Source: Beroe forskalii (lineage: Eukaryota > Ctenophora > Nuda > Beroida > Beroidae). Taken from it: a DNA stretch of 64,000 nucleotides. A program made the translations under genes and the position numbers. Position 1 is the stretch's first letter; every line of letters begins with the position of its first letter. The stretch is taken from assembly GCA_011033025.1 (NCBI GenBank), contig WFMF01000010.1, positions 1,087,163 to 1,151,162 on the forward strand. The letters are read 5' to 3'. The notes beneath the pieces are model-generated. The model was given only the letters and a program-made list of their open reading frames with translations, was not told the origin of the DNA and searched no databases. Of this stretch, positions 5,040 to 62,771 are shown one piece after another.

Positions 5040-8000
5040 GTAAAATCTTATATCATTTTAACTTAAAGCTTGACAAAGTACCTTACATCTTTGCTTGTAT
5101 CAGTGACTGTTCATGCACCAATATCAAATATGATTTAGTGAATCATTAAGTCTCTATCAATGTATATGAGGACTATTTTTTATAATGTTTCAAATCTCAG
5201 GAGTACAGGGGCAGTACATGGGATCTGATGAAAAGGAAGTCATTTACATAGCATACCAAGCTTTGAATGTTACTGAAAAGCAGCTACCAAATAGAACACC
5301 TCATTATTAAACACAGTTTTTATGTTTATCCGCAACATGTCATGTTTATAATCAATAACCCACATGCATCGTGTGTACACCACATATTAAATTCAGTCTG
5401 ATTATCACTCTCATAAATCATGTACATGATCACTGATCAAGTAATCCTAAATTAATAAATTCGCATGTTCTTCATCCGTTTGTATCATTCGTTAGTACTG
5501 TTTTCTTAGACCCATTTTGCTGAGGTTGAAGCAGTAATTTATCTATTTGAATCATCTTTCAGCTACTGGATGGACAAGACTCTATCATCAAGTCAGAGCA
5601 AAGCATCACTTCATCACTGCAAATGCAGATAGGAATTACTCAGCAGCAAATTGAGAAGGGAACAGCCTTCCAGGACGCAATTTCAAAGGTTTGCATTTCA
5701 TAACTCTACACTCTACAGTTGCTCTGTTTCCTTTTTCTAGTTAATTTTCCGATAAGACAACCGATTGGCTACACAGACTGTTAGATGTTTTCTTTTATTC
5801 ACATTCTAGTTACACCGCGGCAGTTGCCACTTACAACCAAGAAATCTGTTGACATATCTGGACTTCCGTCACTATTAATTAATGTTATAAATTTGCTGTT
5901 CTCGTTTAATAATAAATCCCCTGGTACAAACACCCAATACCTATGTAGATTATGAATTATTATCAAATAATTATTAAACTGGGTACTGATTCAGAGCCAG
6001 ATGAATCTTGACCGCAAATTGAAACCAGCCTTAGGCTCAATTTTTGGCTCATGATTTTGTTGAGAAATGGAACACCTTACCTTTATTTAATAACTTAAGT
6101 TGCTGCGCCCATGAATTTAAACACCTTACTCTACGACTTCTTTTATGTTGCTATGAAATATAACATCAAATGCAGTATGCAATCACCTACAACCTCCCTC
6201 TCACAGTTCAACGACTACCTTTCTCAAATTGGTGGCAATGTTAGGATGATCTGCGATGGTCCCTCGCACTTGCGACAGTGCCTCCACCCGGACTCCGTGA
6301 GACGAGACGCACCCCTGTCTCCTCACTGCAACACCTTCACTGATATCAGGTTAGATAGTTACATGCCGATCAGAACTACAGTTCAACTAAACCTCTTACT
6401 GGCTGCGCTTGTTTGAGTGGACTTGATTCCTGCCTGTCATTAATGACATTCAGGGTTCGAGTCTCGAGGAAATTCTCACTCATAAAAGCGGTAAACTTGC
6501 CAAGCTAACCTTGGTAGTCCACCTTTTTCCGAATCAAATTCTACTGATGTCTTGATATATAAGGATGCATTCCATAGGGTATAACTCGTTAATGCCAATT
6601 AAATTTTCGACCCTGTTTTTAAGACTCAACACACCTTGAATTTCACATTTTCGTGGAACTTCGAGTACGCCACACGTCTAGATATTTCTCTGTGGAGCTT
6701 TCTAGGTCACCGTCCTTAGTACACATAATATTTCTATAATAATTTATTTTTTATCTCCTTATCAGAACTTGTATTACCAGTGGTATAACTGTCAAACGCG
6801 CGTTTTATCTCGCATACCATTTCCGTGTGGAGGGTCACATGGTGGTAAATTGATGTAATAATATCAATACGTTCAACATAATGTATAATAACGATAATTC
6901 ATTTCATTTATATAATATTTAATAATAATATGCCAGTTGTACCCAATGATGTTATATAATGACGTCAAGATGGAAATATATTCGTTTTTATCGTATAAAA
7001 TAGCACCACTCTAATTGGTAAGCATCCTTGATGTAAGCTGATACACACGCCATTTTATTATTTCGTGGGGCACAAGAAATATAATCTTATCATCCTCGTG
7101 AGGACGTCCTATAATCGGTAGACAAGGACTTCTCCTTCCGAAATCTGTCATGGACTCAAAAAACCTGTGACATATAATTATCAAGGTTCTTTTTTACTGG
7201 TATACTATTTAATATGAAGAAGTAATTCGGTCACAACTAAAGTACATTAATAACCATTCTGCGAAAAATATAACTTTTAAAGAATTATCTGCCTTTGTCA
7301 TAGAATCTTTGACACAAAGCTATCAATTTTGCTTGACAATAATGTTCGCTGACCCTCAATTTTAATGAACTTAGCTCGATTATTTATAATCGAAACTGTC
7401 ATATGTTTTGATATATGCGTACAGATTAATATAGTTTGAACTGACGAGGGATTCTCGAGTGATATTCTTCATCGAATGATATCAAATATTAAATTATCTT
7501 GATTTCATGCACTTTGTCTTACCTACTTCACTCACTCTTCATCTCATTTCTCACTCTACTTTCCCCTCCCATCTCTTCCTCACCGGTGCTCTTTCTCTTT
7601 TTTCTCTTCTCTCACCCCTTAGACTTGCTCATCTTCCCTCTCACCCCCTCTTAATCGCTCTTACTCCCCCCTCGCACCCCCTCTTAATCGCATATTTACT
7701 CCCCCTTTTAATCGCTCTTACCCCCCTCTCGCCCCACCTCTATATCCCTCTTACTCCACCTCTCACCCCCTCTAAATCGATCTTACTCCCCCTCTCACCC
7801 CCCTCTAAAACCCTCTTACCCTCCCTCTCACCTCTCCTCTAAATCCCTTCTTCTCCCCCCGTACCCCACTTCTTCTCATCTCCCAACTCCCCAGGAAGGA
7901 GTTCCACGCTCGGTTCCCAGCCGTGGATATCAGGAACAACGCTCTCTTTGTCATGGCGCAGCACTTTGCCCTGGATTCTGACGGTAGACACGGTGTCGGG

Positions 8001-11000
8001 CACTGCAGGACCATCCTGGAGATAGCAATGAAGCTCCTTAACCAAGGTAAGCTTAGAAAGCTATGAAGTTTTCTAACCAAGGTACGCCTAGATAGCAATG
8101 AAGCTTCTTGACCAAGGTAAGCTTACACAGCAATGAATCTACAGTACCAAGGTAAGCTTAGATAGCAATGAAGCTCCTTAACCAAGGTAAGCTTAGATAG
8201 CAATTAAGCTTCTTAACCAAGGTAAGCTTAGATAGCAATTAAGCTTCTTAACCATGGTAAGCAATGAAGCTACAGTACCATGGTAAGCTTAGATAGCAAT
8301 GAAGCTTCTTAACCAAGGTAAGCTTAGATACTTAGATAGCAATGAAGCTTCTTAACCAAGGTAAGCTTAGATAGCAATGAAGCTTCTTAACCAAGGTAAG
8401 CTTAGATAGCAAGGAAGCTTCTTAACCATGGTAAGCTTAGATAGCAATGATGCTTCTTAACCAAGGTAAGCTTAGATAGCAAGGAAGCTTCTTAACCATG
8501 GTAAGCTTAGATAGCAATGAAGCTTCTCAACGAAGGTAAGCTTAGATAGTAATGAAGCTTCTTAACCAAGGTAAGCTTAGATAGCAAGGAAGCTTCTCAA
8601 ACAAGGTAAGCTTAGATAGCAATGAAGCTTCTTAACCAAGGTAAGCTTAGATAGCAATGAAGCTTCTTAACCAAGGTAAGTTTAGATAGCAATAATGCTT
8701 CTTAACTAAAGTAAGCTTAGATAGCAATGAAGCTTCTTAACCAAGGTAAGTTTAGATAGCAATGAAGCTTCTTAATGGGGGGGGGGGGGTTCAAGCCAAA
8801 TTTTTGGGAAAACATGTTTCTGAGATAACGGTTGACCCAAAACGTATACCCCGTGGGCCAACTTTTTGGCCAGATTTGGTACCCCCACACCCACTGGCGC
8901 CGCCGTGGCGCCGTGCCAAAATATGGGCACAAAAGGGGCATATTTTTTCAAAAGCAACTTGGGCGGGATCTGAGGTGTGCAATCGATAGATAATGGTCCC
9001 CTGAGTTACCATAAAAAAATTTGAAGTCGATATCTCAAAACGTTATGGCTGAAAAACGCTTATATGGGCATACGCGCGTCACCTAAGCAATTCTGGCCCA
9101 TAACTTGGGCAAATATCAATATTTTTGAATGAAACCAACTTTATTCGATAAATAGCGTTGAATTATGTATTCTCTGCAAGTTTGGGCTTAATTGCTGCTA
9201 AAATGGCGATTTGAGGTCCAAAAAACCTCTAAAAAACCACAAAATCGCCATTTTCTCAGTTCGCGTTTTTTCCAAAGTGCACTTTACTCAAACACTTATA
9301 ACTTCGGCTACGATTGATATTTTTGCATAATTCTTTTTTTTACGTGAAACTAGACTAAATTCCTCAGAAACAAATAGAGCCGGATTTTTGATTTAGGCCT
9401 CCAAAAGTTTTTGGCGCCAAAAGTGCCAAATTTTTGGCAAAAATTTGGCACTTTTGGCGCCAGTGGGTCTGGGAGTACCAAACCTCGCCCACGGGGTATA
9501 CCTTTTGGGTCAACCGTTATCTCAGAAACGTGTTTTCCCAAAAATTTGGCTTGAACCCCCCCTTAACCAAGGTAAGCTTAGATAGCAATGAAGCTTCTGA
9601 ATCGCTGCAGCATACATATAAATTCCCCGCAAACACGAGTTTACCCTGCCATTAAACAGATATTCTAAATAACTCCGATAATAGTGGCTCATTATTTCCC
9701 ACACCAATCACTACACTAAGTTCTTGTTTTCTTACTGGATGCTTCTAAACGATTGCCGGAGTTAAGCAACTGACGTGGTATTTATGACGACATATTATTA
9801 TGTATCACACTAGTAGTTCAGTGCATACTTCCCCTCGAATGAGTTCAGTTCACTTGATCAGTATCTCCTTGTCGCAGTTGCACAGGTTTACATGTTCGTT
9901 ATATGTCCGCTTATCAGCGAGCTGTTTGGGTGGTGTTGGTATCAGTTCGGCATTGGAGGCTGCACAGGTTGATAGTCGTAGAGTCCTCCCCGGGTAAAGG
10001 AATGCCGCGTACTAAACATGTTCAGCATAAATATGCAGCATTAATATTATATATACAGATGAATATTAAACCCAACACACGACGTGATGACTGGTGTAGG
10101 AAGTACTGATGAGACGGTAGATATAATATTCTGCTCTGTTTTATCATAATATATCGCACGAGAGGACTTTTTAAAAACCAAGAGTCGTCAATTATCAGAC
10201 TGCAAAATTAAATGCTTTCACTGAAAACTTAAAAAATAGCTCGCAAATAGTGGGTTCTGTCTAAATTTTCCCGAAAGAAGCATGGCTGTCTCAATGTCCC
10301 ATTCAGTCCTAATTTTATTCTTTGTATCTGAAGCTTGGAAAGTATGATTGACTAAGATTGTGTATTATATTAGTGGTGTTTAAGAAGGGGATTTCATACG
10401 TATACGAATTTAAAATACGCATTTTAAGCAGTTCCGTCTTAAAATAATAGGTAGCAAGTCAATGTGACCCTGCAAGCTAGTTTAGTGTAACGAAGTGAAT
10501 ATAATTGTACATACTTAAATGTAGCTAGTTTCGTGTCATAAACAGCGTACTGCAGTATATATATGTGATGATACATTCTTGATTCTATCACCTCAACACT
10601 TGATCAAATATGTGCAGCAACGACGTGAACCCAACTGATCTACACTACATTTACAAATAGAGCACTTCATCTCGACTTTAGTTGCTCTGTGGAATGTCTG
10701 TACTTGTGGTGGGTCAAGGACATTCCTTTATCATCAGGGCCGGTGTTTATCCCCAGAAATCTCATTCTAGAGTAGCTCCAGGTTGTAATGAATATTAGTA
10801 TGTTAGGAATCTGGTGACAGTGTTCAGACATGAGATATTCGGTAGGATACTGGTAGAGTTGCGTCGTGGGAGGTCTCCTTAGGAGGGAGTGGATGAGTAA
10901 GTGAGTTGCTAAACACGGGCAAAGTGGTGGAATCAGGCTTCTAGAATCTAGAGCTCTTGCTGAAACACCTTTACTTTACGTATCCTAAAGCTCTAATAGC

Positions 11001-38000: not shown

Positions 38001-41000
38001 CTTCTAAGGTAGAAAGGTGAGTTGTATGAAGTGTTTTCGGTGTGAAATCCACATGGCTTACGCAAGAGGCGGTAGCAGCTCTCTCCACTGCGGAGAGCTC
38101 TGATAATTTGTGAAATGTGTGGTGTTGGGATGCCGTGACACTGTGGTCAATGGTTGCTGAATTAGACCCCATACAGTTATCCAGCTAGGTGAAGGGAGAC
38201 TGACTTCCTTTGCGGTCTGATTGAAGCCTTTGGGAGTTTATGATTCGTTAGAGGACTGTGTAGTCTGGGACTGGCTCATTGTCTCTTGTTTCTGATGTCC
38301 TCCAGTGGGCAAGTGGTTCGGTTTACTCAACAGTTTCACTACATTCTTGCGTACCTACCTGGCAGTCTCTATGACAGTATGTCCTGTCTCATATCAACCG
38401 ATATCAACTTATCGGTTGCTAAGGCATTGAGGTGGTTGCTAACTTGGTAGAGTATCTGGTTGTCAAGGCAGTGTGCTGGTTGCTAAGGTCGTGTGCTGGT
38501 TGCTAAGGAAGTGCGGTAGTTACAGATCAATGGATGCGCAGTTACTATGTGATCATAGCTCACATTTTTCTAAAACCGTACATATAATGTCTCTCTCGCT
38601 GCCATGCATCTTATGTGGCTTCTATTGTTTCATGAAATGATGACACTTAACTGTGCTATTATCATGAAGGATTGTTCTAATTCTCTGTGAATTTCGTTGA
38701 ACCTGACTGAAAACAAGGAGTTAAACGTTTTCAAACGTTAAAGGACCCCGAAAATAGAATTTCTGTCAAAACGGCAGGCCTTATCAACAGTTCACGTTAA
38801 ACAGTATCGTGTCCTTCAAAAGTGTGTGTTCGGGGAAAACGTACTGAGCGGCGTTTTTTAGGGAATTCCGCGACAGAACAAAAGGTACAGCTGCTGGTAT
38901 ATATTGTTTAGGAGATAAAACAAAGGCAGGATATATTATAGAGAGAACCCCTACAACGCTAAACTGGTATTTTATGGTACTGGTCAGAGGTCAGTACCGT
39001 CTCCCTCTCTCGGTCTAAGACTTAGAACCATGTACCATGCCATGCCAGTAAGACTTGTTAGGGTATTTGTAATGATGGGTACACTGGAGAAACTTACAAG
39101 CGTTTGATGGGATTGAGGATCACACGGAATTGAGAAACAATGAGGCGACTGCTTCGGAGGAATTGAAAAACAATGAGGCGACTGCTTCTAAGGAATTGAG
39201 AAGCAATGAGGCGACCGCTTCAGAAGAATTTAATTTACTAGAGGCAAAAATTTTCAACACTCAAAAAATTTCCATACTTCATAGTTATGTACCCATCTCA
39301 TATTCTCTTCTAGTAATGTGCCTTCTGTCTGTAGGCACTTAGCCACTCAGTTTCTTAGATTTTAATGTTTTTGACATGTCTTATAATATCATCAATTTAA
39401 GTCTAAACTTAAAAAGTTGAAATGAAGTCTAATGACAAAGATTAGATAAGAGGTTCTTCAGTAACAACTGTTGTTTGATTATAATGCAGCCCTAATATAA
39501 ATTATATTTACCATGATCAGTATAGATAATTAAATGATAGTGATAAAAAATTTAATTAAGTGTTAAGATTAATAGCGTGACGTTGATGTGGTCATTGTTC
39601 ATTAGACACACATATTTCAATCGGGGCATTCAGATCACGTACTTTATACTGTTGGAAAGAAAAGGAATTTAGAATGGAATATCTAGAACTGAATGAAAAT
39701 TGAAAATACTTTAAATAAGCACAATGTTTTCTGGGCGCATCCCGCCTGACACAGCTCCTAATAAAGTAAGGAGGTATTTTTATGTTTTACTCAAACTCGT
39801 TTCCAAAGACATCCCAACTCTGTAAATCTTCTGTAGAGAGAACTTTCTCATCCGATGTCATTGCCAGAGAATCCCAGTTACTCTTTACGTCACGGATAAT
39901 TTAGTGACTGGAGTCCAGCCTTCATCTGCACTACACACACATTCCTGTACACTTTTATCAACTTTGTTTCGCTGTAACTCTTCCTTTGGTTGGTGAGAGG
40001 AGAAGACGAACTTGTTTTTAATTCTGTCCGTTTTCACACATGATAAGTAGCCTGTAAACACATGAAATGAAGCCAGGGTTCGTTGGTTATAAACTTCAGT
40101 TTAACAACCACCTATCATATATACTGGAGATCTAAAGGCAAACATATCATAACAATTTTATAATAGTAGAATATTTAACATAATGTATTTTTTATATCGT
40201 ATAGATTACATTATTATCGCAGTGTTAAACTTGTGTGCCCTATACTAACTAAGCCTGGAACAGGTGACGATCGGGGTTAGTTTTAACATAATAGTACGTT
40301 CCGTTCGTGACTAGAAATTGTCCTCCAAAGCTCACATCTCTAGTGCTTCCCATGGGTTTAATTGTGGAGAAAATAAAATATAAAACCTATGTAGAGCCTG
40401 ATAAAGTACGTGCTCTGCATAATATTAATTAATGAAAAAAATAATTATTTTTGTTGTTCATGAATGTTATAAGGAACCTAAAATATAAAATATTTTGTGT
40501 TAAATTCTTCCCCTAATGCTTTGTCTATCTGGTATATAACATTTGAATTAAAAAGGTCTACACTATAATTATAGCTGCCGGTCAATGGCGATGCCTATTA
40601 CTGAAGGCTTTTATTTTATCATTCTTTCATTTCTTGAAAATAGCTATTCTTTTAATCAAGACTGGAGTAGAGAGTGTTAGAAAAGTAAGGAAAAGCTATA
40701 CAACTACTACTCTTCTACATTACATGAAAAGGAAAATATTCCAAAAAGCACCTCCCATAATGAAGATGGTTTACATAATACAAAATAATTTTTGTCGTTG
40801 AGCTTACTTCTCATTAAAATCTTAAACTTTTTGACACCAGCAATGTTTGAAAATAATCATTCTTTGAACTTTTCAATAGGCATTAATTCTTTGCTTGTTC
40901 CATTCTTTTGTATTCATGCTCTATTTCATCAAAACCAACAACTTTAAACCCCTAAAATAAAATTAGAAAGTTTTGATGAATTTAGTAAAACTCATAATTC

Positions 41001-56000: not shown

Positions 56001-56757
56001 AGACTTCATTGCTGATACACTCCAACAGTGAAGCAACTCTAACAATGCTGATATTTACTCAAGAACTTCAATGTATATTTACATTGGGTGAGTCTGCTGA
56101 TCTATAAATGTAAAACGTAAAGCCGTACCAGGACAGCAGAAAAGGGTGTGAAGTGCTCCAATTTCAACCAACCTTGAGAAGTTACGACACTTTTTTAGAC
56201 TTTAAAGGACATTCTTGAAGTGCGAGACGTTTATCAAATGTTTGACACATTCCTTCAGTTTAAACATTTCAATGTTATTGTAGCTCTCAAAAATCACGAG
56301 CAAACCATAATAGGAGATTCCAAATAGGAGCTTTTCCATGAATTTCGTTTTATGAGATTGCAAAAAGGTTTCTGAAAACAGCTGTATTTAAATATTCATC
56401 TTCCCATCAAATAAATTGTAAGAGAGTAAGAGTAAGTATTCCTCTCAAGTCATTACAGAAGGCCCAGTATAGCAGTATTCCTTTCAGCTTATATTCCTGT
56501 CATAAATGGTCTTTTGACCTTCATAACACACGACCTTTAGAAATTACAATTTAACATAAACTACTGTACAGTGTAGCATAAATATGTCAATAGATATCAA
56601 CTCATTTCCACATTTTAGGAGCTATAACAATAATTCTGTAATTAGTGGCTTGTAACAAATGTACGTTTTGTACCTCCGCTGATTAAAGGCATGATAACCT
56701 TCACACACGTACACACGCAGTTAGCTTCTGTAACTTCTATCGTGGATGTGAGAATAT

Positions 56758-56804
<47 letters not shown>

Positions 56805-59800
56805 CATTCACACCAGACTGAAGTATTGCCACAACGTCAGGTAGGTGTGAAGCAGCCTCTACACACGCAGTATATTCCGCATTGTCATCCTCCAGCTACT
56901 GAACAAGAGCCCGGGACACTTGCTGAGACTTTAGTCTACCTACTGCTGTATTCAACTATATACGATATACATACAGATGAGGCTACTGCTCATCAACTCG
57001 CATTGTTGGTGTGGCTCGTCGCCTGTTTTCCTCCCTCAAGACTGCTCGAGTAAAATTTCAAGTCGGCCCGTTAAAAGTACCTTTCAACAAATTTTAATAT
57101 GCAAAGTTTGAGCATGGAAATTTTGTCGTTCTTTTTGTTTAAAATAGGATATTTTAATTGGACTTTGTCAGCAAAGCTGCGCTGAGTATATAATGGCTTT
57201 GTTGGGTGGTTTAGGCACACTTTCAATCCTGAATTCCTGCATAATGTACATTATGTGTCACGCCCACTCACCATTGTCCATATGCCGAGTCTACCACATT
57301 GCATTAGACACTAGTTGACTCCCAAGAAGGAGACACCTTCTCCATAAACTGTATTATAGTGTGTGTACTATCGGGGAGTAGGTTGGAGGCCTGCCTTTTG
57401 CTCGTGTTTTTGGGAAGTGAAACTTCTTGGGTTTTTATGAGGTGAAACTTAAAACAATGGAGGACATTAATATATGTACAACAAGACTTGGCGGTACATC
57501 CAAATACTGGAAAGCTTTGTCCTTTGTATAAACAAAATAAGCGCTCACGAAATATTTAGTATAAGAAGTATATAAGGTGATTGAGTGGGGGGTGGGTTGG
57601 TCATCAAAAAATATGGACGAAAAGTTGATAACCACTATCTCCAGCGATATTTTCCCATTTGATTACCACCCTTCTTCCGTTCATAAAACTAGGTATTAAT
57701 TTGATTATTGATATAACAAAAGTTATCATATTAATTTGACAATATTCCCTTGCAGTGAGGAGGAAGCGAGCTCTCTTGCCGGCACAGCGCTCACTCCAGA
57801 CCGGAAGGTACAAGTTCAGTGGAGCAACAAGGGAGAAATCCAGCAGTGTTTGACGAGTCTAGGGTACCTGTCACCCTCCGTCACCCCTGTAGCACCCCTC
57901 AACCACTCCCTCTCCGCGCTTTCACTCAGGTGTGTAGTCAGTGTGTTGTCAGTGTGTTGTCAGTGTGTTGTCAGGGTGTTGTCAGGGTGTTGTCAGTGTG
58001 TTGTCAGTGGAGTTGTCAGGGTGTTGTCAGTGGAGCAACAAGGGAGAGATCCAGCAGTGTTTGTGTGTAGAGTGTTGGGATACTTGTCAGGGGTGTTTTC
58101 AGTGTGTAGTCAGTGTGTTGTCAGGGTGCTGTCAGTGTCCCTCTCAGGTGTTGTAGGGGGAGGTGTGTAGTCAGTGTGTTGTCAGAGTGTTGTCAGTGTG
58201 TAGTCAGTGTGTTTTCAGTGTGTTGTCAGTGTGTTGTCAGTGTGTAGTCAGTGTGTTGCCAGGATGTTGTCAGTGTGTTGTCAGGGTGTTTTCAGTGTTT
58301 TGTCGGGATGTTGTCAGTGTGTTGTCAGTGTGTAGTCAGTGTGTAGTCAGTGTGTTGTCAGGATGTTGTCAGTGTGTTGCCAGGGTGTTATCAGGATGTT
58401 GTCAGTGACTCAGTGTGTTGTCAGGGTGTTGTCAGTGTGTAGTCAGTGTGTTGTCAGGGTGTTGTCAGTGTGTTGTCAGGGTGTTGTCAGTGTGTTGTCA
58501 GGGTGTTGTCAGTGTGTTGTCAGGGTGTTGTCAGTGTGTAGTCAGTGTGTTGTCAGGGTGTTGTCAGGGTGTTGTCAGGGTGTTGTCAGGATGTTGTCAG
58601 AGCATATTCAGTAAGTTTCCATTTTACCCAAGAAGTGAAGGATTAAATCAAGTTTGTTAAGCAGGTTCTGGCATGATCCTACAGCAATAAATCTCCAATT
58701 TGATCTTATATATGAAGGAAAACAATTGGATGGTAATGGGTTTTACAATAGTTCATGTCTAACTTATTATACGCTTTCTATCTGCACTCGTATTTCTATT
58801 AACAAAAGGTCTGACAATATCTACTTATCAGACGAAATTCTTAAGATTGCTTGCATCTCCTGAACTATTTGCAGCTTTATTACAACTGCAGATATCGTTT
58901 AATCAATAGTGTCAAATCAAACGCACCGTAGTGAAGAACTTGTGAGAGCTTTGACACATAATATTACTTAGATCTAATGATATGCGGCTGATACTTCATT
59001 TGAAGTCGTGCATTATTGATCTCTATTCGATTTATAATTGCGAATTAACGCAGAACGCTTCCGCTGAAATGAAACTCCTGAGAACATGCTATCTACGAGG
59101 TTGGGGGTTGTTATTACCTGACCAATTCGTGCCATACTCTCCATTCCAGATAGAAGTCACATTCCCTGTATATCCTTCGAATATATAGACCGTTCATATT
59201 CGTTCCCTCACTATTCAATCCCTTTGACTCATTGACAAGCGGTGTAGACTGACACACACACATGTAAAAGACGGTATATAGCAAGCCGTAAAGCCTTTTG
59301 TTTTGGAATTTGGAGAAAGAAAGCCATTGTAAAGTAGCAGAGCTGGCATTGCAGGGTTCACGCATTGTTTGCTCATAGAAACAGCGCGACATGCTGCGCC
59401 AAGCTATTGTTCGATTGCCTCACGTCTTGGCAGTGTTTTCAACTGCTACAGTATAATGTGAGTGTACAAAATCATATGATCATTGCCGTAAATCAAGGGT
59501 GATTTCTTTGGCGAAAGTGCAATTCTAATGTTGAGTTCACAAAATAGCGCATTCAATAAAAGAAAAATGAATCTACAATTCGATAGAAGAACAATTTCAG
59601 TCCATATATGAAATCAGCTCAAAATTTTCTTTGATTACTCCAAATCTTTCGGGTGCCAGCTCATAGCATTCCTCAAATTTTGAATTAGTGTAATTCTTTG
59701 ACATTGCTTCGAGTACCAAGAAGTATTTTTAGACTAATGGACAATGGTTGCTGATGTAGATTGGACTTAACTAGCATATTATGCTCGAATGTGGGCTTTT

Positions 59801-62771
59801 TGTGTGCGAGTAACACTTCTTTTATTCCCTTCAAAGTTTTGTAGACTGAATGTCGTGAAGAAATCTGTTGTATACGTGTAAAATATAATTCATAATTTGC
59901 AGAAAGCAATGCTAGTTCCGTAATTCAACGTGAGGCGCGATGACAAAAGTTTGTATTAGCACAACAATAAAGCATTTACTATGTCAGAAAATCGCGCGCG
60001 CGTGGGAAAAAACGGAACGATCGCCACGTTACGCTCGTGGATGAATACCTGAATATCATCGAACGAAGATTAAAGCCTTGTAAGAATTTCACATGAAATC
60101 CTATGTTCCCCCAACTATTTTCCGTTCAAGATGAGGTAAAACTATGTCCCATTTCAGCCCCCTGCGTCGCCTCCCACACGAGACTGCATCCACATCAAGG
60201 GCCTGTCTCAGAGCGTCACTGAGAACGATATCGTGAACTTCCTGTCCAGCTACCAGTCGTCCCTGATCTGGACCCACATCCACTACAGCCCTAAGCGGAA
60301 GTGTACTGGCAGTGCCTACGTGCAGATGTGCAACAGTGACGAGGCTGTCAGGTCCTCCAACGAGTGCAACCAGAAATTCTTCACTGACTGGTGGGTATCT
60401 TTTATATGACCTGATTTCCACATAAAACTTATTAATGGAACTCGAACATGAGATGCTGCTAAAACCTTGCCACTTCTTTGGAATCCATGCAGGATGAACT
60501 TGGAGAATTGAATTCTGCGGTCAATCTTTATTACCCAACTCAACACGTGACTTAGTTGTATCCCAACTCAATTACTCAACCCCTCCTAACCGCTTTGCCC
60601 CACTGCACTGGTAGCCGTATTGTGGAAGTGATACCGTGCAGTCAGGAGGAAATGATTAACTCCGTGAGGAGTTCGTATTTCCTCACCCACTCCTCATACT
60701 CGGTCCTCATTGGGTCCTCAAACGCTGCTGCTGCTTTCAACGCTGCTGCTCCCCAACTGATCCAGCCTCGAATGTACCTCCAACCACAGATGATCTATCA
60801 AACTGTGAGATATTGAAATGATGCTTTTACAATCAAATATAGTAAATACTTCAATACAAGGTGAAGTTATTAACTGTGAATTCCATCCAATGCAAAACGT
60901 CTCATGTTTTACCCCTGCCACGCCCACAGATGCCCGCTCCTGGACTAGTCTACTACTACCCCACTGCTATTCCTCTGAACGGAGCGGCTGCCTACGGAGC
61001 AGCTGCTGGTGTGATGGCGGCTGCGGCTGCCACCCCGACCCCCATGGTTAGATACAGAGCCGCTGCGGCTGCAGCCGGGGCCTACATTCCTGCTCCTCCA
61101 GAGATGATGGACTACACTACCATCTACAATGGGGTGAGTAATTGCTGGTCACTGGTCAGAGATAGCAGAACTGTAGCCTTGGGGGTTGAGATGACTTATT
61201 TATCCGAGGATTTCGTTAAGTTGGTCATATACAATATATCTGAGCATGATAGAAGCTGTCATCCTAATTGCTGTAACCCTTGTCCCCTCCTTGCTGTAAC
61301 CCTTGTCATCCTCCTTGTTGTAACCCTTGTCCCCTCCTTGCTGTAACCCTTGTCTCCTCCTTGCTGTAACCCTTGTCCCCTCCTTGCTGTAACCCTTGTC
61401 CCCTCCTTGCTGTAACCCTTGTCCCCTCCTTGCTGTAACCCTTGTCCCCTCCTTGCTGTAACCCTTGTCTCCTCCTTGCTGTAACCCTTGTCTCCTCCTT
61501 GCTGTAACCCTTGTCCTCCTTGCTGTAACCCTTTGTCCCCTCCTTGCTGTAACCCTTGTCCCTCCTTGCTGTAACCCTTGTCCCCTCCTTGCTGTAACCC
61601 TTGTCCCTCCTTGCTGTAACCCTTGTCCCCTCCTTGCTGTAACCCTTGTCCCCTCCTTGCTGTAACCCTTGTCCCTCCTTGCTGTAACCCTTGTCATCCT
61701 CCTTGCTGTAACCCTTGTCCCCTCCTTTGTAACCCTTGTCCCCTCCTTGCTGTAACCCTTGTCCCCTCCTTGCTGTAACCCTTGTCCCCTCCTTGCTGTA
61801 ACCCTTGTCCCCTCCTTGCTGTAACCCTTGTCATCCTCCTTGCTGTAACCCTTGTCCCCTCCTTGCTGTAACCCTTGTCCCCTCCTTGCTGTAACCCTTG
61901 TCCCCTCCTTGCTGTAACCCTTGTCTCCTCCTTGCTGTAACCCTTGTCCCCTCCTTGCTGTAACCCTTGTCTCCTCCTTGCTGTAACCCTTGTCCCTCCT
62001 TGCTGTAACCCTTGTCCCTCCTTGCTGTAACCCTTGTCCCTCCTTGCTGTAACCCTTGTCCCCCTCCTTGCTGTAACCCTTGTCCCCTCCTTGCTGTAAC
62101 CCTTGTCCCTCCTTGCTGTAACCCTTGTCCCTCCTTGCTGTAACCCTTGTCCCTCCTTGCTGTAACCCTTGTCCCTCCTTGCTGTAACCCTTGTCCCCTC
62201 CTTGCTGTAACCCTTGACCCCTCCTTGCTGTAACCCTTGTCCCCTCCTTGCTGTAACCCTTGTCCCCTCCTTGCTGTAACCCTTGTCCCCTCCTTGCTGT
62301 AACCCTTGTCCCCTCCTTGCTGTAACCCTTGTCCCCTCCTTGCTGTAACCCTTGACCCCTCCTTGCTGTAACCCTTGTCCCTCCTTGCTGTAACCCTTGT
62401 CCCTCCTTGCTGTAACCCTTGTCCCCTCCTTGCTGTAACCCTTGTCCCCTCCTTGCTGTAACCCTTGACCCCTCCTTGCTGTAACCCTTGTCCCCTCCTT
62501 GCTGTAACCCTTGTCTCTTGTTAGGGCTACCACCACGACATGCAGACCAGTCCCACCATGGAGTACTTCACAGCCCCTCAACTAGTCTCCGACTTCAAGC
62601 ACGCTCAGTGAGTATCTTTACTCATCTTAAAGCATTACCCTTTGTTTCTGTTGAATGAATCATGAATTCAAGTAGAATTTCTTTGTTTTTATTCTTGTCG
62701 AGAACTGACCGTCTTACCCTTGATTATTATATGTACCCTTTTGACTCAGGCACGTCGCATTCACACAGTAA
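4994..62771 (+). CDS. ESRP: ESRP/fusilli-family splicing regulator, whole gene (spliced, about 15 coding exons)
   Basis: This is an RNA-binding protein of the ESRP1/ESRP2/fusilli/sym-2 family. In vertebrates these nuclear proteins promote epithelial splice choices (for example in FGFR2 and CD44) by binding GU-rich RNA. The exons, in order, encode the N-terminal ESRP domain (exons 1-5), quasi-RRM1 (6-7), quasi-RRM2 (8-10), quasi-RRM3 (11-12) and a low-complexity Ala/Tyr/Pro tail (13-15). Recognisable anchors are GSDEKE near the N terminus, VVRLRGLP (RRM1 RNP2), [11 protein letters not shown] (RRM1 RNP1 and helix), RVRGL (RRM2), RDCIHIKGL (RRM3) and [11 protein letters not shown] after RRM3. 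The summed coding length is about 645 residues, against about 680-730 in vertebrates. The family call is secure. The exact gene model is less so, because one exon has a one-base frame break and three junctions are awkward. Only the exon entries below are coding; the rest of the span is intron. Confidence 0.93.
5201..5283 (+). CDS. ESRP: ESRP exon 2 (N-terminal domain; 3' border uncertain)
   Basis: The acceptor is AATCTCAG|G. The reading frame carries [16 protein letters not shown], which matches the highly conserved GSDEKE...LFWKV segment of ESRP proteins. The alignment suggests coding continues through VTEKQ to about 5283, but no GT donor lies there. The next bases are CTACC and the frame closes at TAA 5302. 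The only in-phase GT-AG solution is a weak donor after AAT (GTTACT at 5269), which would drop five residues. The heptamer CAGCTAC occurs at 5281 and again at the exon 3 acceptor (5560), so the border can slide. The exon itself is certain; its end is not. Confidence 0.8.
5563..5688 (+). CDS. ESRP: ESRP exon 3 (N-terminal domain)
   Basis: The acceptor is ATCTTTCAG and the donor is AAG|GTTTGC. The exon is 126 bases (42 codons), phase 0 at both ends. It encodes a Gln- and Ser-rich amphipathic stretch ending in TAFQDAISK. This aligns with the vertebrate segment where a Ser/Ala-rich helix leads into a Phe-Asn motif encoded at the start of the next exon. The intron phase at the Lys|Phe border agrees with my memory of the family gene structure. 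Confidence 0.85.
6207..6349 (+). CDS. ESRP: ESRP exon 4 (N-terminal domain)
   Basis: The acceptor lies in a C/T-rich tract (CCCTCTCACAG) and the donor is CAG|GTTAGA. The translation begins FNDYLS and contains [16 protein letters not shown]. This is the counterpart of the conserved vertebrate block with CTDGQLHVRQILHPE, where the His, the Arg-Gln pair and the Leu-His-Pro are kept. It ends in FTDIR, matching FFDLRKEF across the splice. It ends in phase 2 (AG|G), which exon 5 completes. Confidence 0.92.
6401..6475 (+). repeat. tRNA-like SINE head (pol III A- and B-box-like motifs)
   Basis: A GAGTGG-containing A-box-like motif (6409-6420) is followed about 43 bases later by GGTTCGAGTC (6454-6463), a good match to the pol III B box. 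Spacing and motifs resemble the 5' part of a tRNA of the Leu/Ser type. I could not draw a full cloverleaf with acceptor pairing, so a tRNA-derived SINE head is more likely than a functional tRNA. It sits about 50 bases after the exon 4 donor. Confidence 0.4.
6476..7599. other. Intron 4 interior, no gene seen
   Basis: This is AT-rich intronic sequence with many stops in all frames. I see no conserved coding block or repeat family beyond the SINE-like element upstream. Confidence 0.6.
7600..7893 (+). repeat. C/T-rich minisatellite merging into the exon 5 acceptor
   Basis: Imperfect copies of a roughly 30-36-base unit built from CCCTCTCACCCCC, AATCGC and TCTTACTCC run up to the acceptor CTCCCCAG of exon 5. 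The plus strand is almost pure pyrimidine in the last 200 bases, so the array acts as a very long polypyrimidine tract. The translated ORFs here are low-complexity Pro/Leu/Ser/Thr and are not genes. Confidence 0.85.
7895..8046 (+). CDS. ESRP: ESRP exon 5 (end of the N-terminal domain)
   Basis: The acceptor is CTCCCCAG|G and the donor is CAAG|GTAAGC. The frame opens by completing an Arg codon, then KEF, which is LRKEF in vertebrates. It ends in [19 protein letters not shown], aligning with the vertebrate helix RYGASQVEDMGNIILAMI. The exon is 152 bases and ends in phase 1. Its last 26 bases together with the donor form the unit of the minisatellite that follows. Confidence 0.93.
8047..9599 (+). 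repeat. Minisatellite built from the exon 5 end and its 5' splice site (interrupted by a MITE)
   Basis: Some 21 further copies of a unit of about 35 bases follow the true exon 5 donor. Each unit carries GATAGCAATGAAGCT, then a CTTAACCA block, then AGGTAAGC, i.e. the exon 5 3' end fused to its donor. Most copies keep GTAAGC; others read GTAAGT or GTACGC. The array runs from 8047 to 8775, is split by a transposon at 8776-9562, and resumes for one copy at 9563-9598. Use of any later donor would read into TGA at 8064-8066, in frame with exon 5. Confidence 0.95.
8776..9562. mobile_element. MITE with long terminal inverted repeats and TTAA target duplication
   Basis: The 787-base element starts with a G run followed by TTCAAGCCAAATTTTTGGGA and ends with the reverse complement before a C run. 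Inverted similarity continues inward for about 120 bases, including GGTTGACCCAAAA and the GGCGCC-containing segment. TTAA lies on both sides (8772-8775 and 9563-9566). The surrounding minisatellite shows the empty site CTTCTTAACCAAGG with a single TTAA. No transposase is encoded. TTAA duplication is typical of piggyBac-type mobilisation, but the family is not certain. Confidence 0.85.
9600..11100. other. Intron 5 segment without recognised genes
   Basis: Short ORFs only, none resembling a known family. At 11013-11030 a GGTTCAATCC motif resembles a pol III B box. It sits about 100 bases upstream of the retrotransposon fragment, but a proper A box is lacking. Confidence 0.5.
11119..11463 (+). 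mobile_element. Non-LTR retrotransposon fragment (3' end of the reverse transcriptase ORF)
   Basis: The frame from 11119 to the TAA at 11461 encodes [20 protein letters not shown] followed by a helix-rich stretch with [17 protein letters not shown] and RTGRL. This is the C-terminal Cys/His region (C...H...C before Pro-Ala-Leu) typical of LINE ORF2 proteins of the Jockey/CR1/R1 kind. The catalytic reverse transcriptase and endonuclease domains are missing upstream, so this is a 5'-truncated dead copy. A hairpin with arms AAGATGCC/GGCATCTT follows at about 11479-11496, consistent with an element 3'UTR. Confidence 0.75.
11640..13777. other. Intron 5 segment, nothing recognised
   Basis: AT-rich, with only short ORFs on either strand and no clear repeat or conserved block. 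Confidence 0.5.
13778..15016. repeat. Composite element with TTTAGCTA/GGACT hairpins at both ends
   Basis: Motifs of the form TTTAGCTATATCGTCC and their reverse complements recur near both ends (about 13778-13950 and 14912-15016). At least three form near-perfect palindromes of about 38 bases with a short loop around CAGTT or CGATT. Between them are repeats of CTACGGCACA (14020-14120) and three to four copies of a unit of about 58 bases with TTCTCTGATCAG and GTATCG (14600-14740). No protein is encoded. The layout suggests a non-autonomous DNA transposon with subterminal hairpins. Confidence 0.7.
15017..16310. other. Intron 5 segment, nothing recognised
   Basis: No conserved ORF, RNA gene or repeat structure is visible apart from an AT microsatellite-like run near 16280. 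Confidence 0.5.
16311..19193. repeat. Tandem segmental duplication, copy A
   Basis: This block and the next are diverged copies in the same orientation. Shared landmarks in the same order include CAAGTAGCC, CATTGTCAACTG, CGATTTTCTTAGTAATTTATTC, GCAGACCCTC with ATTACCTG, AATAAAGCACACTA with GGGGTAGGAGG, and CAAGCTCATC. Copy A ends in about four degraded units (19050-19193) of the minisatellite that is expanded in copy B. Scattered indels and substitutions show that the duplication is old. Confidence 0.85.
19205..23172. repeat. Tandem segmental duplication, copy B
   Basis: The second copy of the block above starts directly after copy A. It is longer mainly because of GT-rich microsatellites (21820-21905 and 22421-22441) and the expanded minisatellite at its 3' end. 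Neither copy has a convincing coding frame, so this is duplicated intron sequence rather than a gene pair. Confidence 0.85.
22490..23172 (+). repeat. 41-45-base minisatellite, 16 copies
   Basis: The unit contains GTGTAAACTTCTACATGATC followed by ATGGAGATGCC and a CAGTGGGAGGG block. Sixteen copies occur, with two length forms (a CAGTGGG or a GGCAGTGGG spacer) interspersed. ATGATCAT is a palindrome inside every unit. Because the length forms differ by 3-4 bases, repetitive ORFs arise, but these are not genes. The same unit is present in about four decayed copies at the end of segmental copy A. Confidence 0.95.
23173..23920. other. Intron 5 segment, nothing recognised
   Basis: No structure beyond short random ORFs. 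Confidence 0.5.
23921..24003. promoter_or_regulatory. Promoter-like block: paired CCAAT boxes and CACGTG E-box
   Basis: Two tandem copies of a unit of about 31 bases with CCAATAGGAAGG are followed by GGTCACGTGACC, a palindromic E-box. CCAAT pairs and this E-box are common in metazoan promoters. I see no transcript start or convincing downstream ORF, so regulatory function is inference. A decayed repeat is the alternative. Confidence 0.3.
24446..24537. repeat. Two-copy tandem repeat, about 46 bases
   Basis: Two adjacent copies contain TAGATGTCTCTTTTTGGAAA and CAATCCTGTGTGACCAAAT, nearly identical. Confidence 0.85.
24538..32099. other. Intron 5 interior (7.5 kb), no recognised gene
   Basis: Many ORFs of 60-106 codons occur on both strands, but none resembles a family I know, and their composition follows the AT-rich background. 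A small ESRP linker exon may lie somewhere in intron 5, since the phases of exons 5 and 6 do not match. I did not find it. Confidence 0.4.
32125..32400 (+). repeat. Tandem repeats of about 75-110 bases leading into the exon 6 acceptor
   Basis: Three imperfect units, each with CACAACACCCAT or CACAACACACAAT, a GTTTCTTAT-like segment and CTCATCTATT or similar, precede the exon 6 acceptor. The last unit contains TTTTTAATGGCAG and TATTTCAG, the candidate acceptors. The ORF across this stretch is intronic. Confidence 0.7.
32409..32516 (+). CDS. ESRP: ESRP exon 6 (first half of quasi-RRM1)
   Basis: The frame encodes [20 protein letters not shown] and ends in [11 protein letters not shown]. This is the RNP2 strand and first helix of ESRP RRM1, nearly identical to the vertebrate [20 protein letters not shown]. 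The donor is TCAG|GTAGGA (phase 2). The 5' border is unsure. TATTTCAG at 32408 (or GGCAG at 32399) has the best context, but both need an incoming phase 2, while exon 5 ends in phase 1. The acceptor CGCAG at 32425 would join exon 5 in frame but has a weak pyrimidine tract. A missing linker exon is the likely reason. Confidence 0.88.
32521..32690 (+). repeat. 12-base minisatellite with GTGAGA donor-like motifs after exon 6
   Basis: A 12-base unit, GTGAGACTTACT with C/T variation, is repeated directly downstream of the exon 6 donor. Eleven units contain GTGAGA, which resembles a 5' splice site. Unlike the exon 5 array, the unit is not a copy of exon sequence. Confidence 0.9.
32693..33720. repeat. 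Non-autonomous repeat with internal GGTACC minisatellite
   Basis: The core (about 32860-33500) has roughly 15 copies of a 38-40-base unit centred on AAATGGTACCATTTTTG followed by TTCGTGATTTTGGCAC. The GGTACC centre makes each unit partly palindromic. Similar AATAGGGGTTTAATTTTGGGG-type segments flank it on both sides (about 32760-32790 and 33577-33600). The arrays of ORFs on the minus strand are Lys/Asn-rich low complexity and not genes. Confidence 0.75.
33721..36680. other. Intron 6 interior, no gene
   Basis: AT-rich sequence with a GGA microsatellite (34797-34821) and three short copies of a CACATATTAGCAT motif (35305-35345). No coding potential recognised. Confidence 0.55.
36685..37035 (+). 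repeat. Minisatellite of about 60 bases in intron 6
   Basis: Units contain GTTGTATTCAGGTT, CATCTCTCCTCTGTTTGAG and TTTATAATCTATATCGGG, with internal deletions giving shorter forms towards the 3' end. The ORF through it is repetitive and not a gene. Confidence 0.9.
37689..37861 (+). repeat. 57-base tandem triplication of the exon 7 acceptor and exon start
   Basis: Three copies with a 57-base period each contain CTAACCCACTG, TCTGTTTCAG (or TCTGCTTCAG), then AGGTGGGG and CTCAACCCACAGAAC. Acceptor AGs end at 37713, 37770 and 37827. After joining to exon 6, the first two would read [11 protein letters not shown] and then TAA (37748-37750 and 37805-37807). Only the third copy leads into the rest of RRM1. 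Confidence 0.95.
37828..37961 (+). CDS. ESRP: ESRP exon 7 (second half of quasi-RRM1; one-base frame break)
   Basis: After the exon 6 AG, the frame reads [12 protein letters not shown], matching the family GG..LCLN.QGRRNG block. From 37863 the matching frame is one base over: [18 protein letters not shown] and then [15 protein letters not shown], which contains RNP1. Removing one C of the pair at 37861-37862 restores a single frame that enters exon 8 in phase 0. The donor is GAG|GTGAGT. The sequence on both sides is well conserved, so an assembly or sequencing indel is more likely than a pseudogene, though a real lesion cannot be excluded. Confidence 0.92.
37962..38055 (+). repeat. Duplicated exon 7 donor region
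   Basis: GGTGAGTTGTG, then a TTTT segment and GGTGTGAAATCCACA, begins at the exon 7 donor and is repeated about 54 bases downstream (GGTGAGTTGTATG at 38016). The second copy keeps a strong donor, AAG|GTGAGTT. Reading through to it meets TAG near 38011-38013 in the RRM1 frame. Confidence 0.8.
38440..38522 (+). repeat. Short tandem repeat, GGTTGCTAAGG unit
   Basis: About four imperfect units of 22-25 bases with GTGCTGGTTGCTAAGG. Confidence 0.75.
39130..39240 (+). repeat. 36-base tandem repeat, three copies, open in one frame
   Basis: Each unit encodes [11 protein letters not shown]-like 12-residue repeats. Several of the differences between units fall at third codon positions. No flanking gene is visible, and it lies deep in intron 7. 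Confidence 0.7.
39241..41975. other. Intron 7 interior, no gene
   Basis: AT-rich background. At 41240-41310 short GGTATGCTGGAGTAT repeats are present; otherwise nothing is recognised. Confidence 0.55.
41980..42066. repeat. Two-copy tandem repeat, about 43 bases
   Basis: Adjacent near-identical copies of AGAAGGGGGTGACTGAGTAA followed by CTGGTAGTATTC. Confidence 0.9.
42067..45980. other. Intron 7 interior, no gene
   Basis: Contains a short GT microsatellite (42819-42836), small CATCAGTTGGTGTCTATC repeats (43024-43062), repeated CCACGCCCA motifs (44740-44800) and CAGTC-rich sequence (44940-45055). No coding block recognised. Confidence 0.5.
45985..46119 (+). repeat. C-rich imperfect repeats at the exon 8 acceptor
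   Basis: Repeats of CCCTCCCC, CTCGTTACTAACTCCCC and CAGCACT run into the acceptor TCCTCCTCAG. Internal AGs such as CCCCAG near 46032 are potential decoy acceptors. Confidence 0.7.
46120..46266 (+). CDS. ESRP: ESRP exon 8 (inter-RRM linker and start of quasi-RRM2)
   Basis: The exon is 147 bases, phase 0 at both ends; acceptor CTCCTCAG|GTG, donor GTG|GTATGT. It opens with [10 protein letters not shown], continuing RYIE of exon 7 exactly as vertebrate RYIEVYKATGEDFL does. It contains [20 protein letters not shown], the RNP2 strand (vertebrate VIVRMRGLPF) and first helix of RRM2. The linker between is diverged. Confidence 0.93.
46275..46428 (+). repeat. GT/T-rich degenerate repeat after the exon 8 donor
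   Basis: Imperfect units with TGTCTGTGTTTG, GTTTCATGTTTGT and TCGTCTGTTTCGTG follow the exon 8 donor within about 10 bases. The strand transcribed with the gene is U- and GU-rich. Confidence 0.65.
46430..53928. other. Intron 8 (7.5 kb), no recognised gene
   Basis: Mostly AT-rich. It holds short ACGTAC-type repeats (48570-48660), a 22-base GGCATACCGAGGCCACTCAG repeat (50290-50362), CA/CATA microsatellite sequence (50655-50735) and a CCGCGGAAT repeat (51925-52025). A GC-richer stretch at 52440-52930 may be a decayed element. The 128-codon ORF at 50816-51202 and an 82-codon ORF at 52680-52928 match nothing I recognise. Confidence 0.5.
51925..52025 (+). repeat. CCGCGGAAT minisatellite
   Basis: Five to six imperfect units of about 16-18 bases with TACCGTGGAATC or TACCGCGGAATT. 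Confidence 0.75.
53929..54029 (+). CDS. ESRP: ESRP exon 9 (middle of quasi-RRM2)
   Basis: Acceptor CTCATCAG|GTG, donor ACAA|GTGAGT; 101 bases, phase 0 in and phase 2 out. It encodes [20 protein letters not shown], the counterpart of vertebrate [21 protein letters not shown], and includes the RNP1 strand GEAFLFFY. The DG..TG.AF pattern is the clearest landmark. The segment before it is diverged. Confidence 0.92.
54030..57755. other. Intron 9, no gene
   Basis: Contains a two-copy tandem repeat of about 34 bases with ATAGCCCTATTACTTTTCAA (55350-55416), imperfect CATTGCTGATAC repeats (55960-56050) and a GT microsatellite (56763-56803). Nothing else recognised. Confidence 0.55.
56763..56803 (+). 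repeat. (GT)n microsatellite
   Basis: About 19-20 uninterrupted GT dinucleotides. Confidence 0.95.
57756..57929 (+). CDS. ESRP: ESRP exon 10 (end of quasi-RRM2 and linker to RRM3)
   Basis: Acceptor CCCTTGCAG. With the two bases from exon 9 it encodes [20 protein letters not shown] and [15 protein letters not shown], matching the vertebrate CEEYAQNAL...[22 protein letters not shown] region, followed by a Pro/Ser/Leu linker. The best donor is CTCAG|GTGTGT at 57930 (phase 2). Exon 11 needs an incoming phase 0, so either exon 11 lacks a C or a downstream phase-0 donor in the array (for example AGG|GTGTTG at 57976) is used. Confidence 0.88.
57930..58615 (+). repeat. GU-rich minisatellite from the exon 10 donor, with embedded exon 10 fragment
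   Basis: Units of 11-12 bases (GTGTTGTCAGG, GTGTTGTCAGT, GTGTAGTCAGT) repeat for nearly 700 bases starting exactly at the exon 10 donor. At about 58026-58090 the array contains a diverged copy of exon 10 sequence: CAGTGGAGCAACAAGGGAGA, then TCCAGCAGTGTTTG and a TACTTGTC segment. The genuine exonic copy is at about 57817-57873. ORFs over the array are Cys/Val/Leu/Ser low complexity. Confidence 0.93.
58616..60157. other. Intron 10 remainder, no gene
   Basis: AT-rich, with no recognised features. A short alternating CG run (CGCGCGCGCG) occurs near 59993-60002. Confidence 0.55.
60158..60390 (+). CDS. ESRP: ESRP exon 11 (quasi-RRM3)
   Basis: Acceptor CCCATTTCAG, donor GACTG|GTGGGT (phase 2). The frame starts CCC CCT and encodes [20 protein letters not shown], then a helix, and [14 protein letters not shown]. 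These match vertebrate [20 protein letters not shown] and GDAFIQMKSADRA. RNP2 is CIHIKGL and RNP1 is GSAYVQMC. The exon is 233 bases. Its start is in phase 0 only if read as it stands, which conflicts with exon 10. A sixth C in the run at 60158-60162 would resolve this. Confidence 0.93.
60615..60804 (+). CDS. ESRP: ESRP exon 12 (end of RRM3, start of C-terminal tail)
   Basis: Acceptor ACTGGTAG|C, donor ACT|GTGAGA. Completing a Cys codon, it encodes [17 protein letters not shown], matching the vertebrate RYVEVFQCSAEEMNFVL at the RRM3 exit. A Ser- and Ala-rich stretch and [14 protein letters not shown] follow. Phase 2 in, phase 0 out. The intron before it is 224 bases and the one after is 125 bases. 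Confidence 0.92.
60930..61133 (+). CDS. ESRP: ESRP exon 13 (Ala/Tyr/Pro-rich tail)
   Basis: Acceptor CGCCCACAG, donor GGG|GTGAGT; 68 codons, phase 0 both ends. It encodes [20 protein letters not shown], followed by runs of alanine (up to six) and [17 protein letters not shown]. Vertebrate ESRPs have a comparable tail rich in Tyr-Tyr-Pro and Ala. No domain is expected here, and such tails usually act in protein contacts. Confidence 0.88.
61260..62518 (+). repeat. 23-base pyrimidine-rich minisatellite filling intron 13
   Basis: Roughly 54 units (by length) of CCTTGCTGTAACCCTTGTCC plus a CCT variant run almost to the exon 14 acceptor. I find no AG dinucleotide from about 61262 until the acceptor GTTAG ending at 62524. 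Each unit has TGTAAC, resembling a branch-point motif, embedded in pyrimidines. The opposite strand has long repetitive ORFs (up to 295 codons), which are artefacts of the array. Confidence 0.95.
62525..62607 (+). CDS. ESRP: ESRP exon 14 (C-terminal tail)
   Basis: Acceptor CTTGTTAG directly after the minisatellite. It encodes [20 protein letters not shown] and VSDFKHAQ. The donor CTCA|GTGAGT is strong. If it is not used, the frame ends at once at TGA 62609-62611, so both spliced and unspliced forms give nearly the same C terminus. Confidence 0.85.
62750..62771 (+). CDS. ESRP: ESRP exon 15, terminal coding part
   Basis: Acceptor TTTTGACTCAG|G. Completing the Gln codon, it adds HVAFTQ and stops at TAA 62769-62771. 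It is short but in phase with exon 14. Confidence 0.65.

What the first reader, a model, noticed from the sequence alone, without database searches (positions are those of the whole stretch)
7600..62524. Minisatellites repeatedly anchored on splice junctions of one gene
Tandem arrays touch or contain many splice sites of this ESRP gene: the acceptors of exons 5, 6, 7, 8 and 14 and the donors of exons 5, 6, 7, 8 and 10. Four contain copies of the junction or exon (exon 5 donor, exon 7 acceptor, exon 7 donor, exon 10 fragment). Most of the remaining introns have quieter interiors. This looks like a recurring process that seeds arrays at exon-intron borders, and I know of no standard description for it.
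Basis: partly seen in the sequence, partly recalled or inferred. Interest (0 to 1): 0.75.

Follow-up and report, generated by a model that had tools for sequence, protein, structure and literature searches.

The report
Splice-junction minisatellites ("mirages"), probable ctenophore
In what looks like a comb-jelly genome, short tandem repeats sometimes copy the border between an exon and an intron, as in lancelet genes where such arrays are called mirages; they mostly look like by-products of local duplication that splicing tolerates.

Summary
The gene is ESRP (best PDB hit ESRP1). In a sample of myosin, TCP1, kinesin and dynein exons of the same assembly, 15 of 178 called junctions do so, 10 of them inside an array. 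So it is not special to ESRP, and it has a name: amphioxus "mirages", minisatellite-like duplications of intron-exon boundaries (PMC3087553 passages). Seeding at borders is not established: spanning arrays are near a random-unit expectation (10 against 7.1, sd 2.0), but spanning-or-abutting ones exceed it (15 against 9.5; strong arrays in complete introns 7 of 8 against 2.7). Coverage is lower next to junctions when pooled by distance, yet not lower at intron ends in 47 complete introns. Two TCP1 gene copies show the same junctions single and multiplied. Best explanation: frequent local tandem duplication; if a unit spans a splice site, the exon-proximal copy keeps working and the rest becomes intron. 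The mitochondrial contig suggests a ctenophore; species unknown.

The parts
7895..8046 (+).
8020..8775 (+). 35-bp x 21.6 array that copies the exon 5 donor junction (27 nt exon + 8 nt intron per unit)
   Evidence: TRF score 1083; 15 of its 27 GTs, the real one included, score at least as high as the real donor; all 5 reported matches of a 351-nt piece lie at this locus
9563..9599 (+). last unit of the exon 5 array, cut off from the rest by an inserted element with inverted ends
   Evidence: 40-nt match at C2:1096724-1096763, i.e. window 9562-9601; sequence
7636..7860 (+). CT-rich imperfect array ending 34 nt before the exon 5 acceptor
32409..32516 (+). exon 6 (start of an RRM)
   Evidence: acceptor score is poor (-1.6), so its start is uncertain
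32523..32686 (+). 12-bp x 13.7 array starting 6 nt after the exon 6 donor
37689..37861 (+). 57-bp x 3 array; each unit holds a TTCAG|AGGTGG acceptor plus exon start; the last copy is the exon 7 border
37828..37961 (+). exon 7 (rest of that RRM)
   Evidence: carries a one-base frame break in the assembly, see Noticed in passing
37969..38053 (+). two copies of a 23-nt piece, 62 nt apart, just after the exon 7 donor
57930..58600 (+). 11-bp x 61 array starting at the first intron base; holds a 37-nt copy of exon 10 at 58027-58063
61268..62515 (+). 23-bp x 54.7 array ending 9 nt before the exon 14 acceptor
   Evidence: all 7 reported matches of a 301-nt piece lie in this array
62525..62607 (+). exon 14

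Best explanation
These are mirage-type minisatellites. Local tandem duplication of units of about 10-100 bp is frequent in this genome and roughly blind to gene structure. When the founding unit spans a splice junction, the exon-proximal copy keeps the exon and its splice site, every extra copy falls into the intron, and the change is close to neutral; the array can then grow. A unit inside an exon is usually removed by selection, so arrays stop at or just past exon borders and their ends collect there. Shown: arrays at junctions in several genes, single-copy against multi-copy state in one gene pair, units not found elsewhere for two ESRP arrays. Inferred: neutrality, use of the exon-proximal site, the mutational mechanism, clipping by selection.
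For: Outside ESRP, 10 of 178 called junctions lie inside an array, 5 donors and 5 acceptors. Seven were read as sequence, e.g. dynein C441 donor CTCAAG|GT x3 with 86-bp unit, dynein C277 donor x7, C163 acceptor x4, C240 acceptor x3. C558 TCP1 copies: a donor single in one copy has about three units (37 bp, the last degenerate) in the other; an acceptor single in the second has four in the first. The reach into the exon is below one unit in 9 of 10 sampled spanning arrays and in both ESRP ones (27 of 35 nt, 34 of 57 nt). Spanning count near the random-unit expectation. All reported matches of two ESRP arrays lie at their own locus. Same anatomy described in amphioxus, with regular splicing.
Against: Arrays that span or abut a junction exceed the random-unit model: 15 against 9.5 (sd 2.3), 14 against 7.6, 11 against 6.6 at three score cuts; in 60 complete introns P 0.05, 0.004 and 0.001. 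Nulls that keep arrays within 0, 10 or 30 nt of the exon border are also exceeded (15 seen against 4.9, 6.6, 8.5; P 0.01 or less), the one allowing 60 nt is not (10.6, P 0.08); at score 150 all four are exceeded (11 against 3.3-5.8, P about 0.01 or less). Coverage in 47 complete introns is not lower at the ends (8.1% first tenth, 9.8% last, 4.3-5.3% in the fourth and fifth tenths), so depletion next to junctions holds only when pooled by distance. ESRP has more touched junctions than the sample (5 of 18 against 15 of 178, Fisher P 0.024), though it was picked for that. No RNA data.
Confidence: 0.68

Rival explanations
1. Arrays are preferentially born at splice junctions: something at exon-intron borders (AG|GT-rich sequence, pyrimidine tracts, co-transcriptional DNA exposure) raises the rate of tandem duplication there.
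For: Excess of touching arrays; 7 of 8 strong arrays in complete introns touch a junction, P 0.001; ends of strong arrays within 12 nt of a junction 1.87 per kb against 0.19-0.96 per kb in the intron bins beyond; coverage not lower at intron ends by tenths.
Against: Spanning arrays are not clearly in excess; coverage pooled by distance is lowest next to junctions; counting all arrays, ends at the border (1.87-2.34 per kb) are about as dense as at 60-250 nt (1.86-2.24), though denser than beyond 250 nt (0.90-1.06); clipping at exons predicts a pile-up of ends too.
Confidence: 0.2
2. The arrays are functional in ESRP: repeated decoy donors or GU-rich tracts tune splicing of a splicing regulator.
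For: 15 of 27 GTs in the exon 5 array, the real one included, are donors as strong as the real one; the 671-bp array after exon 10 is GT-rich.
Against: The same kind of array occurs in dynein, kinesin, myosin and TCP1 genes; C558 gene copies differ in which junction carries an array; no RNA evidence.
Confidence: 0.05
3. Assembly artefact in repeat-prone sequence.
For: Exon 7 has a one-base frame break, so base errors may exist; no reads available.
Against: Copies carry private differences; such arrays are found in several genes; an element with inverted ends and TTAA on both sides sits inside the exon 5 array.
Confidence: 0.03
4. Dispersed elements (introner-like or other mobile repeats) inserted at splice sites.
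For: Introners are known to create introns (recalled). A 34-38 nt stretch just before the exon 7 array is dispersed.
Against: All reported matches of the exon 5 and exon 14 array pieces lie at their own locus (that search skips simple repeats and very common words); units contain the local exon sequence. The dispersed stretch is not part of the repeated unit.
Confidence: 0.02

Closest known systems
Amphioxus 'mirages' (Adh3, globin BflGb6/BflGb9, TnC, PGBD5)
   Same: Minisatellite-like tandem copies of an exon-intron boundary, at 5' and at 3' borders; many copies keep AG/GT; unit sizes from 10-72 bp (Adh3) to about 160 bp (globins); copy number differs between haplotypes (PMC3087553 passages; PMC3902484 one passage).
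   Different: Reported there in cephalochordates; here the mitochondrial contig is ctenophore-like. Regular splicing was supported there by RT-PCR, not testable here.
Intron gain by tandem duplication of AG|GT segments (Rogers model)
   Same: Tandem duplication around splice signals; the amphioxus globin paper links the two.
   Different: In the C558 pair both copies have the same intron with and without the array. No gained intron was shown.
Internal tandem repeats that change exon-intron structure of human paralogues (PMC2812944)
   Same: Tandem repeats that modify gene structure between gene copies.
   Different: Seen only in a search listing; not read.
Human 6-16 (IFI6) minisatellite with multiple donor sites
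   Same: Minisatellite that carries repeated splice donors.
   Different: Recalled, not looked up in any call; single human gene.
High tandem-repeat content of a ctenophore genome
   Same: TRF marks 13% of the Hormiphora californensis genome (PMC8527503 passage); here about 10% of the sample and of the window.
   Different: No statement on splice junctions in the passages seen.

Membership tests
Mirage (junction-spanning minisatellite) | Tandem repeat units that span an exon-intron boundary | tested here: met
   ESRP exon 5 donor and exon 7 acceptor; 10 of 178 sampled junctions
Mirage (junction-spanning minisatellite) | Both 5' and 3' boundaries affected | tested here: met
   5 donors and 5 acceptors among the 10 spanning arrays
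Mirage (junction-spanning minisatellite) | Copies retain splice-like AG/GT signals | tested here: met
   Exon 5 array: 15 of 27 GTs as strong as the real donor, itself included; three TTCAG acceptors in the exon 7 array
Mirage (junction-spanning minisatellite) | Copy number unstable between alleles | tested here: inconclusive
   Only gene copies could be compared: 1 against about 3 and 1 against 4 units; DNA search of exons 11-13 found ESRP once in G000
Mirage (junction-spanning minisatellite) | Regular mRNA splicing is not disturbed | not testable with these tools
   No RNA data
Mirage (junction-spanning minisatellite) | Somatic instability (Adh3) | not testable with these tools
   No reads
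Introner-like dispersed element | Similar sequence at many unrelated junctions | tested here: not met
   Two ESRP arrays tested; all reported matches at their own locus; the search skips simple repeats and common words
Intron gain by tandem duplication | A new intron position appears with the duplication | tested here: not met
   C558 copies share the intron positions with or without the array; one gene pair only

The most novel reading that the evidence does not exclude
In this lineage strong minisatellites really do start at splice junctions: in 60 complete introns 7 of 8 strong arrays touch a junction against 2.7 expected, so a mutational process coupled to exon-intron borders, perhaps to AG|GT microhomology or co-transcriptional DNA exposure, would create mirages in a ctenophore-like genome as in amphioxus and could supply raw material for new introns.
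Probability: 0.22. Interest if true: 0.65.

Novelty: new member of a known kind. Interest (0 to 1): 0.4.

Why it matters
If the organism is a ctenophore, mirages are not only a cephalochordate oddity but may appear where tandem duplication is frequent. About 1 junction in 18 of the sample lies in such an array (10 of 178), so gene prediction and short-read assembly may stumble there, and gene pairs such as C558 offer single-copy and multi-copy states for studying how splicing picks one site out of many near-equal copies.

Tried and rejected
Seeding at junctions as main explanation: not established, kept as a rival. Dispersed mobile unit: not supported for two ESRP arrays. I first misread the side of arrays because I took minus-strand loci as turned; they are stored in contig orientation; spanning arrays split 5 donors to 5 acceptors. 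One search counted one junction twice (C173) and missed one (C558 acceptor); one search corrects this. The called C212 acceptor is doubtful (its exon match had internal stops); it stays in the counts. Gene copies in the sample (C558, C441, C173) are not independent. Rfam found nothing in the window. Second ESRP copy: none by DNA search of exons 11-13.

Left out of the junction counts: RRM loci L001-L008, L070 and the mitochondrial loci; of 123 Myosin_head and TCP1 matches only the 91 lying in fetched loci were used; of the Kinesin and AAA_6 matches only those in the stretches, and of the seven repeated pieces at C441 only one per gene stretch. Those stretches were chosen by me for clusters of exons, which favours short introns; C441 was chosen because it already showed repeated matches, and C291:171-175 kb likewise, so the sample is not strictly blind. 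Junctions were called by my script with recalled splice-site frequencies, not from annotation. Searches (failed; empty script) gave nothing.

Full report
What the gene and genome are. Translated pieces of the + strand gene match RRM_1 in two of three pieces tried; the exon 5 piece matches no Pfam family. Joined exons 5-8 match Epithelial splicing regulatory protein 1 best among 44 PDB sequences (E 8e-36; next hnRNP H, 4e-30). The window is part of contig C2 of a 216-Mb assembly of 1134 contigs. Its mitochondrial contig C1134 (13,339 bp, 6,900 bp read) has a COX1 with four TGA codons in frame that looks very derived to me. ARAGORN, run with the bacterial code, found no tRNA in the 6,900 bp; COX1 and the six ORFs of 80 aa or more in L091 lie on one strand. 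Absence of tRNA genes, all genes on one strand, high AT and an extreme rate are traits of ctenophore mitochondria (PMC5924465 passages). I therefore call it a probable ctenophore; this is inference and the species is not resolved.

The observation. TRF gives 57 rows, 33 merged arrays covering 6,494 bp. Of 18 located ESRP junctions, five are inside or within 12 nt of an array: exon 5 donor, exon 6 donor, exon 7 acceptor, exon 10 donor, exon 14 acceptor. Random positions give 2.5 (P 0.10). Two of these arrays contain the junction itself (exons 5 and 7). Exon 10's array starts at the first intron base and includes a 37-nt piece of the exon.

The control sample. Exon-by-exon matches to Myosin_head, Cpn60_TCP1, Kinesin and AAA_6 lying in fetched DNA make 46 segments, 178,872 bp, with 93 merged arrays (10.3% coverage) and 178 called junctions, 120 of them called jointly as donor-acceptor pairs. 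Fifteen junctions lie inside or within 12 nt of an array and ten inside one (listed; same numbers of arrays). Reading seven of the ten as sequence confirms a repeated junction in six and leaves one, C212, with an uncertain exact border.

Is there anchoring? Pooled by distance from the junction, array coverage is 2.0-4.0% on the exon side, 6.7% in the first 12 intron nt, 9.8% at 12-30, 13.2% at 30-60, 14.8% at 60-120, 16.2% at 120-250, 17.5% at 250-500 and 35% at 500-1600 nt; on the acceptor side alone it is 15-22% from 30 nt on, without a trend. By tenths of 47 complete introns of 150 nt or more it is 8.1, 7.9, 9.4, 5.3, 4.3, 8.0, 10.9, 11.7, 11.1 and 9.8%, so not lower at the ends. Array ends, all scores, are about as dense at the border as at 60-250 nt; for strong arrays (score 150 or more) they are denser within 12 nt of the border (1.87 per kb) than in the bins beyond (0.19-0.96 per kb). 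Placing arrays at random within their intron, allowed 0, 10, 30 or 60 nt into the exon, gives 4.9, 6.6, 8.5 or 10.6 touched junctions against 15. Treating each array as grown from one unit placed at random, 7.1 of 50 arrays should span a junction and 10 do; 9.5 should touch and 15 do (at score 80, 6.1 and 10, 7.6 and 14; at score 150, 5.4 and 7, 6.6 and 11). In 60 complete introns spanning is 4 against 2.7, 4 against 2.2 and 3 against 2.1 (P 0.27, 0.14, 0.34), touching 7 against 3.9, 2.9 and 2.7 (P 0.05, 0.004, 0.001) at the three cuts. I read this as mainly random origin plus clipping by exons, with an excess of abutting arrays that clipping may or may not explain.

Single and multiplied states. 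C558 carries two copies of a TCP1 gene on opposite strands; the main aligned blocks around the compared exons are 86-98% identical. One donor (TTACAG|GTTTGTT) is single in the copy near 175 kb and present in about three units of 37 bp, the last degenerate, in the copy near 214 kb; one acceptor (GTTTCAG|AA) is single in the second and fourfold in the first. So junction copies arise or vanish after gene duplication, with the exon kept, at the same intron position.

How it works. A unit that spans a junction leaves one complete exon end next to the exon; added copies are intron. This predicts that an array reaches into the exon by less than one unit, as seen in 9 of 10 sampled spanning arrays (the exception is the doubtful C212) and both ESRP ones. 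The copies are strong decoys: 15 of 27 GTs in the exon 5 array score at least as high as the real donor, itself included; reading on from exon 5 into the array meets a stop within a few codons. How the right site is chosen is not shown here; in amphioxus RT-PCR suggested regular splicing (PMC3087553 passage).

What is known. Mirages were named for amphioxus Adh3 and described in globin genes (PMC3087553, passages read), and are discussed for PGBD5, Adh and TnC (PMC3902484, one passage read). The original Adh3 paper was seen only through these citations. A search for 'ctenophore' with 'minisatellite' gave two papers, neither on this by title; 'ctenophore' with 'tandem repeats' and 'introns' gave 17, 15 listed, none on this by title; at least two of 'amphioxus', 'minisatellite', 'mirages' gave nine, of which the two whose passages I read are on mirages and the rest were judged by title. 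The library is open-access only, so earlier reports elsewhere may exist.

Noticed in passing
window 8776-9562: An element of about 790 bp with 83-nt inverted ends (94%) sits inside the exon 5 array; TTAA flanks it on both sides and the array unit continues after it. Looks like a non-autonomous TTAA-target (piggyBac-like, recalled) element younger than the array.
   Followed up: partly
window 37828-37961: Exon 7: after the TTTCAG acceptor the frame reads [11 protein letters not shown], then the ESRP-like frame continues one base out of step ([10 protein letters not shown]). Either an assembly base error or a different acceptor is used.
   Followed up: partly
window 37656-37693: A 34-38 nt stretch just before the exon 7 array matches 39 other places among the 40 scored of 108 candidates in G000: a short dispersed repeat of unknown nature; no exact match in the 91 fetched loci.
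   Followed up: partly
L085 (C291:171000-175000): Kinesin exon pieces (221-264 and 263/266-300 of the domain) repeated at about 0.8 to 2.0 kb spacing, with the same acceptor sequence called three times: larger tandem exon duplication.
   Followed up: no
L071, L072 (C441:50600-54200 and 59400-60700): Two dynein gene stretches carry the same 86-bp donor-spanning array with different copy numbers, 3.6 and 3.0 by TRF.
   Followed up: partly
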